Virus record (IMG/VR): IMGVR_UViG_3300048925_000238
Location: 1 to 37,403 of that record
Length of the DNA: 37,403 bases
Direction: 5' to 3' (one strand)
Source of the DNA: a virus
How positions within the stretch are numbered: the stretch's first letter is position 1; each line of letters opens with the position of its first letter. The notes under the pieces were generated by a model. The model was not told the origin of the DNA. It made no database searches and saw only the letters and a program-made list of their open reading frames with translations. The position numbers and the translations under genes were made by a program. Shown here piece by piece: positions 4,986 to 27,335 of the stretch.

Positions 4986-6682
4986 GGTTCGCTCTCCTCA
5001 GCGCCAATGCCGGCGAAGGACACGCGGCAACGCGCGACGCCCTCACCATCGGTTTCATGGGACAGCTCCACGGTGTCGGAACTGAGGCGGGCCAGCACCA
5101 TCCAGCTGATCAAGCGGATGGCACTCGGCTGCAGGGCGATGCCGTGCGGCGCGTCCAGCTGCAGGAACTCCCGCTGTGGATCCAGCTCCGTGGCCTCAAT
5201 CAGCTGCCGGTACAGCACCTGGCCACTGAACAGTTCGATGCGTAGGTGACGACGACCGGCCTGGGCGCGCCCGAAGCGGGCCACGCCTGCCCACGCCACC
5301 ACGATGCCGCTGGAGGTGGTCAGGGCTGGCTCAACCAGCTCCAGGTCATCGGCCCAAGACGGCACCCACAGCGCAGCCGCGCGGCCCTGCAACCAGTACA
5401 GCAGGCTGCGCAGATTGGCCTGCTCGGTGCGCCCCCAGGTTTGCCAGGCGTGCGACTGCAGTGGCCATGCCTTGCCGGTGATGTCATCGACGGCAACAGG
5501 GCCGATATCGCCATCGATCACCACCAGCTGCCGGCCGAACTCGGCCGTCTGCGCCTGGTCGAGGTCGGGGCGCTGCTCCAGCACAGGTCGACCGCGATAG
5601 ACCGCCGCCGGCGCCGCTGCTGGCCAGTCGCAGGTCTCCACCGCAGCCAGGCGCACGGTCGACCGCATGACCTGGTCGGTCACGCGTTCCAGGCTGGGGG
5701 TCTCGGCAATGCGAGCTGTCCTGCAGGGCAGCACCCGTGTGCCAGGTGCCCAGGCGTTGGCCGTGGGGCGGGCCAGCTGCAGACTGTCGGCGGCAATGTC
5801 GGCCACTTCCACCAGCTCGTAGGTGGTGACGTCCTTCCAAAGCATGGCCAGGCCGCCGGGGCGGTAGTCGCGCTGCGTAGCGGCCTGTACCGGGATGGAC
5901 TGCACACCCAGCGCCAGGCGCGCACTCAGCCACGACACGTCGTTCCAGACCGGCAGCGCCCAGGTACGCGCCGACCAGTCGAACAGCGCGTGTTCAAGCA
6001 CCTGGCGCTCGCGCCGGTCGGCCAGCACGCTGAACTCCCAAGAGCGCCTCGGCGAGCCACGCAATGGGAATCGGGCTTCGCCGCCGCCGATCGACTGCTG
6101 GACGTCGGTCGCCCAGGCCAGCGTTTCGGTGACAGGCCGCTCCCAATCCGGCGGCAGCATCCAAGCCGACATGCGATTGCCGGTAATCGTGACGGTGCGG
6201 CGCCCCAGGGCCACGAAGTCGTAGGACAGCGACGCCGCGATTACCGGCGGACCTTCTGTCGTGACCGACAGCTGCCAACGGCGCAACTGCAGGGCCGAGA
6301 ATGCCAACGGCGGGGCGCCAGGACCTACCAGCTCGACGCCTTCGCCGTTCTCAAGGGTCACCGACGCCAGGGTCTGCTGCTGGAGGTATGAATTCCAGAC
6401 CTGGACGTAGCGCACCTGGTTGGTGACCAGGTTGCCCAGGTCAATGCGCAGAGGCAGGACGTGGATCTTGTAGTACCAGTCATCGAACGAGCTGCGCAGG
6501 TTCGGACCAGCAGACCGCTGCTCGGGTTCCACCACCGTGGCCTCATGGCCAGGCCCCACGTAGAAGCCAGCGCCGGCCAGCGCAGAGCGGAACTGCAGCG
6601 GGATCCTGGTGCGCGGGATACTCAGGTTGGCGCTGCGCCAGTTCGGTCCCGTGCTGCTCTGGGTGGAAAGAATGACGCCCAT
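4982..6682 (-). CDS. Large tail-tip / distal tail structural protein
   Basis: A 566-residue, Trp- and Val-rich, beta-rich protein without signal peptide or membrane segment. The ATG at 6682 overlaps the stop of the upstream gene (TGATG), so the open frame further upstream is not used. It contains repeated segments of similar type (RSWEFSVLADRRERQVLEHAL near residue 230; LRSLLYWLQGRAAALWVPSW near 440), which look like two copies of a distal-tail (Dit)-type beta-sandwich. Position between the paired 324-residue proteins and the BR0599 protein fits an adaptor between tail tube and tip hub. Function is inferred from synteny with D3112-like siphophages. Confidence 0.7.
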   Translation of the reverse strand: MGVILSTQSSTGPNWRSANLSIPRTRIPLQFRSALAGAGFYVGPGHEATVVEPEQRSAGPNLRSSFDDWYYKIHVLPLRIDLGNLVTNQVRYVQVWNSYLQQQTLASVTLENGEGVELVGPGAPPLAFSALQLRRWQLSVTTEGPPVIAASLSYDFVALGRRTVTITGNRMSAWMLPPDWERPVTETLAWATDVQQSIGGGEARFPLRGSPRRSWEFSVLADRRERQVLEHALFDWSARTWALPVWNDVSWLSARLALGVQSIPVQAATQRDYRPGGLAMLWKDVTTYELVEVADIAADSLQLARPTANAWAPGTRVLPCRTARIAETPSLERVTDQVMRSTVRLAAVETCDWPAAAPAAVYRGRPVLEQRPDLDQAQTAEFGRQLVVIDGDIGPVAVDDITGKAWPLQSHAWQTWGRTEQANLRSLLYWLQGRAAALWVPSWADDLELVEPALTTSSGIVVAWAGVARFGRAQAGRRHLRIELFSGQVLYRQLIEATELDPQREFLQLDAPHGIALQPSAIRLISWMVLARLSSDTVELSHETDGEGVARCRVSFAGIGAEESEP

Positions 6683-7656
6683 CAGGACTTCCGCACCGCC
6701 CAGCCATAGTTGCCGCTTGCTGGCGGTGCGTTGGTGTTGCTGCTCATCGCCAACTTGCGCAGCCAGGGGAACACCACCCAAGTCTCGTCTGCGATCGTGA
6801 CTTCCTGCTCGGGCTCCAACCTGTCCATGTAACAAGCGCGCAGGCCGATGACATGGCCGATCGGGGAGTGGTAAGGCGTGGTGCCAGGCCGCCGGACGGT
6901 CAACTGGATCGGCTGAAACACGCTGCGGCCAGAGAAGGTGTTGTCATCCGCGCCAGCAAGCACGTAGCCAAGCCACATGCTGTCGTAGCTGTCCGACGTC
7001 GTTGCTTGGTAGATCGACCCAACACCACTACCGGCCTGACCTTCCGCACCCAGCGTTCCACCGAAGTAGTTGCACAGCTGGTGGTAGCTGTTGCTCCTTC
7101 CGTCCTCAATGCAATCGGCGCGAACATGGCCACAGCCGGTGTTGCTGGTGTTGTTGCCGAACAGGACCACGTTGGACCCGTTGGGCCCGATCAGTCCGCT
7201 CCAGCCACCGGTGCGTGCCCAATAGGTTCCATCGACATAGGTACCGCCCGCGTAGCTGCCAGCCTTCTCCAGCACGCCGAATGCGTGATGACGGTATTCG
7301 CCAGCGACTGCCTGAGCGATCGCGGCATGGATCGCGGTCCCGTTGGAGAAGAGTTTCAGGCGCGGGAAGGGGCCGGTCAGCTCGTAGGACAAGATGTCGC
7401 GAGGAGACGCCAACGGCTGCTGCGCCGGGGTCGCGCCTCCGTCGTAGCCAATGGAGATGCGCGATCGCAGGCTGTCCTGACCGGTATTGAACAGGTGCAC
7501 ATAATCCGATACTCCAGGAATGCGGACCGTGGCAGTGCGATTGGCACCTGACAGCGTATTGCGTTCGACGGTCCAGCCATTGGCCTGCGCGAACTGCACG
7601 ACCAGGTCGATCAGCGTCTGGACGTTCGGGACATTGTTGAACTCGGCGTATGCCAT
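6682..7656 (-). CDS. Tail-associated virion protein, second of a similar-sized pair
   Basis: A 324-residue protein directly downstream of a second 324-residue protein. It begins with a short helical segment (LIDLVVQFAQANGWTV), then a beta-rich domain rich in Gly, Ser, Asn and Tyr, as in exposed virion proteins. No enzymatic motif is apparent. Its partner starts with a comparable helix (LRDFLTTNAALVAANQQWQVV) and shares the order of helix, beta strands and a Gly/Tyr/Trp-rich middle, so an old duplication is plausible although identity is low. Both likely belong to the tail-tip region. A host-surface binding role is possible but not shown. Confidence 0.65.
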   Translation of the reverse strand: MAYAEFNNVPNVQTLIDLVVQFAQANGWTVERNTLSGANRTATVRIPGVSDYVHLFNTGQDSLRSRISIGYDGGATPAQQPLASPRDILSYELTGPFPRLKLFSNGTAIHAAIAQAVAGEYRHHAFGVLEKAGSYAGGTYVDGTYWARTGGWSGLIGPNGSNVVLFGNNTSNTGCGHVRADCIEDGRSNSYHQLCNYFGGTLGAEGQAGSGVGSIYQATTSDSYDSMWLGYVLAGADDNTFSGRSVFQPIQLTVRRPGTTPYHSPIGHVIGLRACYMDRLEPEQEVTIADETWVVFPWLRKLAMSSNTNAPPASGNYGWAVRKS

Positions 7657-26157: not shown

Positions 26158-26181
26158 AAGAAGGCCACCCGGAGGTGGCCT
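26158..26181 (-). terminator. Rho-independent terminator of the repressor operon
   Basis: GAAGGCCACC (26158-26167) and GGTGGCCTTC (26172-26181) pair perfectly over 10 bp around a 4-base loop. On the minus strand it is followed by TTCGTTT and lies 5 nt past the stop of the BamE-like gene. It should separate repressor-operon transcripts from the lysis operon that starts just downstream. Confidence 0.88.
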
Positions 26182-26185
26182 TCAG

Positions 26186-26569
26186 TCAGTTCGCCGCGTG
26201 CAGCGCCGCAGGCTGTTCCATCAATCTCTTCCGCGCGTCGGGATCCAAGTCGACGCCGCGCAGCTGCAGGATGCGCTGGAAGGTTCCATCCGTGTTGAAC
26301 ACCAGCATCACGTGCTTGAGCTGGGTGTCAGAACGCCCGGTCCAAACACTGGACTTCGACTGGACGTGCTGCCACAGGTACGCGATTGCTCCGCTCTTGC
26401 CCACGGTCGAACTCTGTGGCTCCGCACCAAGGAGCGCGACAGCTTCGGCGAGCGTGGTCTTTCCGACTTCCAACTGAGCCAGGTTGGCAGCGTTGAAATC
26501 CTGCCCAACCGTCGCCTTTGCAGCTGTCAGTAGCAGCAGAGCGATGACTGCGAAGTACAGCTTCTTCAT
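26186..26569 (-). CDS. Secreted BamE/SmpA-like protein, co-transcribed with the repressor
   Basis: A 127-residue protein with a clear signal peptide (MKKLYFAVIALLLLTAAKA, cut near TVGQ) and no lipobox Cys. The mature part has the BamE/OmlA-type order: ANLAQLEVGKTTLAEAVALL, then GAEPQSS, YLWQHVQS, and the strands KHVMLVFNTDGTFQRI. It overlaps the repressor stop by 4 nt (ATGA), so it should be made in the lysogen. It is not needed for phage growth by any known scheme, so it is likely cargo acting on the cell envelope, for example in superinfection exclusion. The role is inferred. Confidence 0.8.
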   Translation of the reverse strand: MKKLYFAVIALLLLTAAKATVGQDFNAANLAQLEVGKTTLAEAVALLGAEPQSSTVGKSGAIAYLWQHVQSKSSVWTGRSDTQLKHVMLVFNTDGTFQRILQLRGVDLDPDARKRLMEQPAALHAAN

Positions 26570-27024
26570 GGTGACTTTCTCCTTGTCGTTTTGCGGGGCT
26601 TGACGGCGACGCTGGACTCATCCGTAGCGGTACGGATGTCGTGAACGAAACCATCGATGGTGGACTGCAGCAGGTCCGACTGGCCCAGCGCCGCACCGAC
26701 CAGGATGTCGCGGACGAGCGCCTGGTAGCTCTCTGGAAGGTCCAAGGTCGATGCCTTCTGTGACGCATCCGAAAGCAGCTTCATTCGACGGCCCAGCTCG
26801 ACTTCTGCTGGTTGGGCGAACACCGGCCCGCCGCCTGTGGCGAGGAACTCGGCGCGCACGTGTAGTTTTTCCACAAAGCCGCGCATTTCGTCCGACGACA
26901 GCTTCTTGACCCGCCCCGAGGTCAGGTTTTTTACCCGATCGATAGATATACCAAGCCTTTCAGCCAGGTCGACCTGCCTGAATCCCCCGTCTTCCATGAT
27001 CTGGCGGATGAGTGAAGAAACCAC
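26566..27024 (-). CDS. Phage repressor (c-like, helix-turn-helix)
   Basis: A 152-residue protein. The GTG at 27024 has AAGGGG with a 5-nt spacer; a TTG 15 nt upstream would lack a ribosome site. An N-terminal XRE-type helix-turn-helix (FRQVDLAERLGISIDRVKNL, about residues 15-34) binds DNA. The rest is helical, without the Ser-Lys pair of LexA-type self-cleaving repressors, and ends in a basic tail (VKPRKTTRRKSP). Its divergent position from the early operon, and operators in between, identify it as the lysogeny repressor. The absence of a cleavage domain suggests induction is not through RecA-driven self-cleavage, as in Mu. Confidence 0.88.
   Translation of the reverse strand: MVSSLIRQIMEDGGFRQVDLAERLGISIDRVKNLTSGRVKKLSSDEMRGFVEKLHVRAEFLATGGGPVFAQPAEVELGRRMKLLSDASQKASTLDLPESYQALVRDILVGAALGQSDLLQSTIDGFVHDIRTATDESSVAVKPRKTTRRKSP
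26860..26874. promoter_or_regulatory. Second operator-like site inside the repressor gene
   Basis: GTGTA (26860-26864), a 5-bp spacer, then TCCAC (26870-26874) matches the main operator (GTGTA-N5-TACAC) at 9 of 10 half-site bases. The spacer (GTTTT) also resembles the main one (CTTTT). It could bind the repressor and loop to the main site, or be chance. Confidence 0.4.
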
Positions 27025-27033
27025 ACGAACCCC

Positions 27034-27062
27034 TTGCAAGGTGTACTTTTTACACTTAGGAT
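27034..27062 (+). promoter_or_regulatory. Early promoter driving the Ner/transposase operon
   Basis: TTGCAA (27034-27039) and TAGGAT (27057-27062) are 17 bp apart and each match consensus at 4 of 6 bases, giving a start near 27069 and a leader of about 54 nt before the first early gene. The operator sits inside it. Weak boxes make this a candidate only. Confidence 0.5.
27041..27055. promoter_or_regulatory. Main repressor operator
   Basis: GTGTA (27041-27045) and TACAC (27051-27055) form a perfect inverted repeat around CTTTT. It lies between the early promoter's -35 and -10 boxes and over the -10 area of the repressor promoter, so one bound repressor dimer would shut the early operon and adjust its own synthesis. 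A half-site, TTTTACAC, is at 27086-27093, and CCTTGCAAGG (27032-27041) is a separate perfect palindrome adjacent to it. Confidence 0.65.
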
Positions 27063-27122: not shown

Positions 27123-27335
27123 ATGCGTTCCACTGACCCCGGCCTTGATCTTCACAAACGTGTGCGCGCCGGCTTCGTACTGCAGGGCAAGACCCTGACC
27201 GAGTGGTGCCGTGCCAACGGCACCACTGTGACCAACGCACGTGCCGCATTGCTCGGCACCTGGAACGGCCCGAAGGGCCGCGCGATGCGCAGCCGGATCG
27301 TGAAGGCGGCCTGCATCGACCGGGTGCAGGCATGA
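27123..27335 (+). CDS. Ner-like small DNA-binding regulator
   Basis: A 70-residue basic protein, the first gene of the early operon. LHKRVRAGFVLQGKTLTEWC followed by a second helix NGTTVTNARAALLGTWNGPK looks like a helix-turn-helix. It is in the place of Mu Ner, which turns down early transcription after the first rounds. The ATG has AAGGA 8 nt upstream. Overlap with the next gene is ATGA. I do not see high similarity to Mu Ner itself; this family is common next to repressors of transposable phages of Pseudomonas/Burkholderia/Xanthomonadaceae. Confidence 0.75.
   Translation: MRSTDPGLDLHKRVRAGFVLQGKTLTEWCRANGTTVTNARAALLGTWNGPKGRAMRSRIVKAACIDRVQA

What the first reader, a model, noticed from the sequence alone, without database searches (positions are those of the whole stretch)
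26186..27024. Secreted BamE-like gene locked into the repressor operon
The gene overlaps the repressor by 4 nt and ends at a strong terminator, so it should be expressed in lysogens. A BamE-type periplasmic protein without a lipid anchor is not part of any known phage assembly step. Because BamE belongs to the machine that inserts outer-membrane proteins (including phage receptors), a decoy or exclusion function is plausible.
Basis: partly seen in the sequence, partly recalled or inferred. Interest (0 to 1): 0.7.

Follow-up and report, generated by a model that had tools for sequence, protein, structure and literature searches.

The report
Secreted BamE-fold protein in prophage repressor operon
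Next to its "stay dormant" switch, this Stenotrophomonas phage carries a gene for a small exported protein shaped like a bacterial outer-membrane assembly part, in a spot where related phages swap in other exported proteins together with the switch, probably to change the host's envelope and keep rival phages out; that function is not yet tested.

Summary
Window 26186-26569 (-) encodes a 127-aa protein whose ATG overlaps the repressor stop by 4 nt, with a good ribosome-binding site and a strong terminator just after it. It is phiSHP3 orf21 ("hypothetical") in a B3-like transposable phage of Stenotrophomonas. The predicted structure is a BamE fold (Z 9.0, 82 of 84 residues; the top 18 PDB entries are all BamE). 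The gene is under purifying selection (dN/dS 0.06-0.15). Homologues in other B3-like phages sit at the end of the repressor operon and are lipoproteins; here the lipobox cysteine is replaced by a signal-peptidase-I-type AKA site. BamE residues reported as needed for function are mostly lost, so a real BAM subunit is unlikely. In related phages this slot holds exported proteins of at least five unrelated families (19 of 23 loci, against 2 of 203 early-operon genes), and repressor plus exported gene can be swapped as one cassette between phages 92-97% identical on both sides. RNA-seq of the related Fc02 lysogen shows its slot gene transcribed. Best reading: a prophage-expressed, soluble periplasmic superinfection-exclusion or lysogenic-conversion protein. 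Exclusion is inferred. New variant of a known phage SmpA/OmlA lipoprotein family.

The parts
26186..26569 (-). CDS of the BamE-fold exported protein, 127 aa (phiSHP3 orf21 homologue)
   Evidence: fold; dN/dS
26513..26569 (-). Signal peptide MKKLYFAVIALLLLTAAKA, SPase-I type (AKA), no lipobox; it aligns with the lipobox of the homologous lipoproteins
   Evidence: sequence; alignments; cleavage site inferred by motif, no dedicated predictor run
26189..26512 (-). Mature domain: alpha-alpha-beta-beta-beta(-beta) BamE core (residues about 20-107) plus C-terminal helix with motif GxxLxPxxRxRLMxxPAA
   Evidence: AF2 models (pLDDT 72.7 and 82.5)
26579..26584 (-). Shine-Dalgarno AAGGAG, 9 nt before the ATG, inside the end of the repressor gene
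26566..27024 (-). Cro/CI-type HTH repressor (orf20 in phiSHP3; the ORF listing also gives a TTG start at 27039)
26566..26569 (-). 4-nt ATGA overlap between repressor stop and BamE-like start
   Evidence: conserved
26160..26183 (-). Intrinsic terminator at the end of the repressor operon, before the lysis genes
   Evidence: also present in L004 and L003
27040..27122 (.). Divergent regulatory region between repressor and ner-like gene, with two TTTTACAC copies at 27048 and 27086 (candidate operator half-sites)
27123..27335 (+). Ner-like small DNA-binding protein, first gene of the lytic operon (context)

Best explanation
The gene is the last cistron of the repressor operon of a B3-like transposable phage. 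Shown from sequence and models: it encodes a BamE-fold protein with a signal peptide that has lost the lipobox found in its homologues, and it sits in a slot where B3-like phages carry interchangeable exported proteins, exchanged together with or independently of the repressor. Inferred by analogy with Fc02: it is made in lysogens. Inferred: the mature protein is soluble in the periplasm and acts there as a superinfection-exclusion or lysogenic-conversion factor, most likely by binding an incoming phage's DNA-delivery apparatus or its receptor in the periplasm, rather than by replacing BamE in the BAM complex.
For: Operon anatomy and conservation. RNA-seq of the B3-like phage Fc02: the repc-e4 transcript covers the slot gene in the uninduced lysogen (PMC9936078); Fc02 e4 is a lipoprotein of another family (phrog_10370) whose C-terminal tail is shared with B3's BamE-like protein. 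BamE fold; phrog_3135 match E 1.7e-10; Pfam BamE matched by 7 of 12 aligned family members, best 2.8e-5. Purifying selection. Slot statistics: the first gene after the repressor is exported in 19 of 23 near B3-like loci, against 2 of 203 early-operon genes, in at least five families (phrog_3135, 10370, 2320, 29243, 14789). Cassette swap: L056 and L057 are 92-97% identical on both sides, with no detectable DNA homology over repressor plus exported gene. [quoted passage not shown]
Against: No exclusion, expression or localisation experiment is known for this gene. In Fc02 the exclusion activity tested lay in other genes (olg1, ORF10), and e4 has no assigned function. Exported prophage proteins can serve host fitness rather than exclusion. 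The 23 slot loci are not independent of each other, and export was called by a home-made rule. No PADLOC match.
Confidence: 0.5

Rival explanations
1. BAM decoy: the secreted BamE mimic binds BamD/BamA, lowers or changes insertion of outer-membrane proteins, and so removes phage receptors.
For: Nearly complete BamE fold match (Z 9.0); lysogenic slot; a domain with a similar fold is solved in complex with an outer-membrane autotransporter (PDB 9vnj).
Against: Of the E. coli BamE residues listed as needed for function (PMC10135246), C20, Q34, N36, Y37, D66, F68, F74, R78 and Q88 are not kept, while G35, W73, V76 and F95 are (alignment). The N-terminal stretch of mature BamE up to about residue 31 has no counterpart once the signal peptide is cut.
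Confidence: 0.15
2. General lysogenic conversion: the protein supports or changes the host envelope (stress, antibiotic or detergent tolerance), giving lysogens a fitness gain unrelated to other phages.
For: Exported proteins of many unrelated families in the slot; BamE/OmlA acts in envelope integrity (PMC10135246).
Against: Exchange together with the immunity repressor fits inter-phage competition better, although any lysogenic cargo could travel this way.
Confidence: 0.25
3. It is a lytic or virion-related protein (for example an entry or lysis aid) rather than a lysogeny function.
For: A related BamE-like lipoprotein gene lies directly before the tape-measure gene in a lambda-like Pseudomonas phage.
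Against: Here the gene is in the repressor operon, ahead of a terminator and separated from the lysis genes; in Fc02 the slot belongs to the lysogenic transcript.
Confidence: 0.07

Closest known systems
Phage B3 ORF22 / SmpA/OmlA-domain lipoprotein (UniProt Q5ZQZ4) and intact relatives L010-L016, L022
   Same: Same BamE-like domain (25-36% identity), same phrog_3135, same place at the end of the repressor operon, same phage kind
   Different: Relatives are lipoproteins with a GC-A lipobox and most carry a different C-terminal tail (EYQRRYREITGQ); in the B3 reference record the gene is split by a frameshift (ORF21/ORF22). The window protein has an AKA site and no cysteine.
E. coli BamE (PF04355; PDB 7nri_E, 5d0o_E)
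   Same: Fold over nearly the whole domain, Z 8.7-9.0, 16-17% identity
   Different: No lipid anchor, most reported functional surface residues lost, extra C-terminal helix, insertions before and after the second beta strand
Fc02 e4 (phrog_10370 lipoprotein)
   Same: Same slot after the repressor, exported, transcribed in the lysogen
   Different: Unrelated domain; shares only a tail motif with B3's BamE-like protein
Ltp of phage TP-J34 and Glo of Vibrio cholerae (exclusion proteins)
   Same: Ltp: exported, encoded in the lysogeny module, transcribed in the prophage state; Glo: soluble periplasmic exclusion protein (PMC3952083)
   Different: No sequence relation tested; exclusion has not been shown for the window protein

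Membership tests
BamE / SmpA-OmlA fold | alpha-alpha-beta-beta-beta BamE fold | tested here: met
   VIA-align Z 9.0, rmsd 2.4, 82 aligned of 84; top 18 entries all BamE; rows outside BamE, BLIP, OsmE, YjgB, BtiO and the 9vnj domain at 4.0 or below; first model agrees
BamE (BAM subunit, PF04355) | Pfam match for the protein itself | tested here: not met
   No PF04355 match for the window protein; 7 of 12 aligned family members match, best 2.8e-5
BamE (BAM subunit) | Lipobox cysteine (C20), outer-membrane lipid anchor | tested here: not met
   No cysteine; AKA at the lipobox position
BamE (BAM subunit) | Residues listed as needed for BamE function | tested here: not met
   N36->Q, Y37->D, D66->S, F68->V, F74->Q, R78->S, Q88->L in the alignment; list from PMC10135246. 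Core positions G35, W73, V76, F95 kept
BamE (BAM subunit) | Physical association with BamA/BamD | not testable with these tools
   Needs pull-down or complementation
phrog_3135 phage family | Profile match along the protein | tested here: met
   E 1.7e-10, residues 1-99 to positions 1-100 of 114
B3-like transposable phage | MuA/MuB-type transposition genes, ner-like/repressor switch, B3-like order | tested here: met
   94.8% to phiSHP3, described as B3-like (PMC8228603); phrog_310, 296 and 1368
Superinfection-exclusion proteins (functional class) | Expressed in the prophage state | tested here: inconclusive
   Operon anatomy here; RNA-seq only in the relative Fc02
Superinfection-exclusion proteins (functional class) | Exported to the envelope or periplasm | tested here: inconclusive
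   Signal peptide by motif and homology only; no fractionation
Superinfection-exclusion proteins (functional class) | Blocks superinfecting phage | not testable with these tools
   Needs plating assays
PADLOC defence systems | Match to a known defence protein model | tested here: not met
   No match at E 0.1

The most novel reading that the evidence does not exclude
The protein is a secreted, unanchored BamE mimic that engages BamD/BamA or a nascent outer-membrane protein and changes which receptors reach the surface, forming with the repressor one mobile immunity-plus-exclusion cassette that B3-like phages exchange as a unit.
Probability: 0.12. Interest if true: 0.85.

Novelty: new variant of a known kind. 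Interest (0 to 1): 0.5.

Why it matters
It gives a concrete place in a large group of transposable phages where envelope-directed lysogeny genes can be found by position, and it suggests that intracellular immunity (repressor) and an extracytoplasmic function (exported protein) can be inherited as one exchangeable cassette. If exclusion is shown, it would add a BamE-fold class to the short list of soluble periplasmic exclusion proteins, and would bear on host range among phages of Stenotrophomonas and Pseudomonas.

Tried and rejected
Close relatives in 84,980 species genomes: P0001 found none; the wider alignment found one Pseudomonas prophage. Sequence profile against PDB found no BamE (only CLN8 at E 0.65); the link needed structure. 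Foldseek alone was weak (best BamE E 0.17, then 0.044), so the fold claim rests on VIA-align. Window protein against NCBIfam: only chance matches (TrbE 0.013). Sigma-70 consensus scan found no promoter for the repressor operon. Rfam: nothing. Idea that all phrog_3135 relatives sit before the tape-measure gene: not supported, top hits in Pseudomonadaceae genomes have mixed neighbours. Leptolyngbya phage gene in the same slot tested as a homologue: it is an unrelated lipoprotein. The phiSHP3 research paper and, under the identifier tried, the Ps56 paper were not found in the library.

Full report
What is there. The window is a B3-like transposable siphophage record: its right 22 kb is 94.8% identical to Stenotrophomonas phage phiSHP3 and 89.3% to Bhz63, with MuA/MuB-type transposition proteins (phrog_310, phrog_296) and a phrog_1368 regulator. 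The reported gene is ORF 26186-26569 (-), 127 aa. Its ATG overlaps the TGA of the repressor (26566-27024; a TTG start at 27039 is also possible) by 4 nt, it has AAGGAG 9 nt upstream, and a 10-bp hairpin with a T-rich tail starts 2 nt after its stop. The operon runs opposite to the ner-like/transposase operon. The gene is orf21 of phiSHP3 and a hypothetical protein in Bhz63, whose submitters mark the terminator.

It is a real gene. Five other Stenotrophomonas phages or contigs carry it at 91-98% identity with the same overlap. Pairwise dN/dS is 0.06-0.15, about the same as the repressor.

It has the BamE fold. The window protein has no Pfam BamE match, but it matches phrog_3135 at 1.7e-10, and 7 of 12 aligned family members match Pfam BamE, best 2.8e-5. 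AlphaFold2 with 12 sequences gives mean pLDDT 82.5, core above 90. VIA-align puts 18 BamE entries first (Z 7.4-9.0; best rmsd 2.4 A over 82 of 84 residues), followed by BLIP, YjgB, OsmE and BtiO (Z 5.5-6.4), further BamE and BLIP-like chains and the 9vnj domain at 4.6-4.9, and unrelated rows at 4.0 or below. The first, shallower model agrees. Foldseek alone was weak. The best viral structure match is phage B3's protein, already named a SmpA/OmlA-domain lipoprotein.

It has lost the lipid anchor. The homologues in Pseudomonas-type B3-like phages (L010-L016, L022, L079, L086) have a lipobox (for example LAGCA); the window group and L056, L058 have A-K-A at that position, with no cysteine in the window protein. 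L070 has a cysteine in the signal but no canonical lipobox. On a small tree the lipobox-less proteins group together (79/93 support), so a single loss is the simplest reading; support is moderate.

It is probably not a BAM subunit. This tests conservation, not binding.

The slot. Repressors were located by a profile in nearly all of 80 transposase-anchored viral loci. In the nearer B3-like set (Fc02, the Leptolyngbya phage Lsp-JY19, L055-L073, L075, L076; 23 loci) the first gene after the repressor is exported by a simple signal/lipobox rule in 19; two of these (L061, L072) were read by hand from the translations, and L070 was counted by hand as a BamE-like exported protein although the rule called it TM. 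Not exported: L063, L065, L066, L068. Among 203 early-operon genes of the same loci only 2 pass the rule (the Fisher value printed there, 1e-18, used 17 against 6, before the hand corrections). The loci are related, so this is not an independent-sample test. The exported genes belong to phrog_3135 (BamE-like), 10370 (e4), 2320, 29243, 14789 and unassigned families. In more distant loci the next gene is usually a protein with an NNxVAGRD or GDINN motif, often with a transmembrane segment, sometimes followed by a BamE-like lipoprotein.

Cassette exchange. L056 and L057 are 92% and 97% identical on the two sides but share no detectable DNA homology from about 6385 to 7425, the stretch that holds the repressor plus exported gene (BamE-like in one, e4-like in the other); L058 and L059 show the same. 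L071 and L076 share the exported protein (91%) but not the repressor (45%), so the two can also move apart.

Expression. [quoted passage not shown] the authors give no function to e4 (PMC9936078). Fc02 e4 is a lipoprotein of phrog_10370 (that the paper's e4 is the ORF annotated Fc02_20 follows from its position). Expression of the window gene in its own lysogen is therefore inferred.

Function. Position, export, selection and cassette exchange fit a lysogeny-expressed envelope factor. Superinfection exclusion is the most likely role, with precedents in Ltp (lysogeny module, lipoprotein, blocks injection; lipid-free form has wider range) and the soluble periplasmic Glo protein (PMC3952083). Host-envelope conversion is the main rival, a BAM decoy a less likely one. 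None has been tested. Confidence in the BamE fold and the exported slot is high, in lysogenic expression good, in exclusion about one half.

Novelty. BamE-domain genes in phages are known, so this is a new variant: a non-lipidated form, plus the observation that it occupies an exchangeable exported-protein slot.

Noticed in passing
L007 11022-11524 (phage B3 NC_006548): B3 ORF21 and ORF22 look like one BamE-like lipoprotein gene split by a frameshift in the reference record; intact copies exist in L010-L013.
   Followed up: partly
L007 10406-10993, L010 4177-4809, L022 3864-4938, L079 5248-5619, L087 6711-7142: A motif NNxVAGRD[YF]xE recurs at the C-terminus of some B3-like repressors and at the N-terminus of the next gene (membrane protein); function unknown.
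   Followed up: no
L021 3956-4270: A BamE-like lipoprotein gene lies directly before the tape-measure gene in Pseudomonas phage SC_8_H2H8_2017.
   Followed up: partly
L056-L059, repressor region: Repressor plus exported gene exchanged as one block between otherwise 92-97% identical phages.
   Followed up: yes
window 27048 and 27086: Two TTTTACAC copies 38 nt apart in the switch region, candidate operator half-sites.
   Followed up: no
L052 853-1827: In a Pseudomonas prophage a second lipoprotein gene follows the BamE-like one, suggesting an operon of exported proteins behind the repressor.
   Followed up: no
L008 11160-11663 and L007 11138-11524: Fc02 e4 and B3's BamE-like protein share a C-terminal tail (LDELNxMQLPYxEYQRRYREITGQ) on unrelated domains.
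   Followed up: partly
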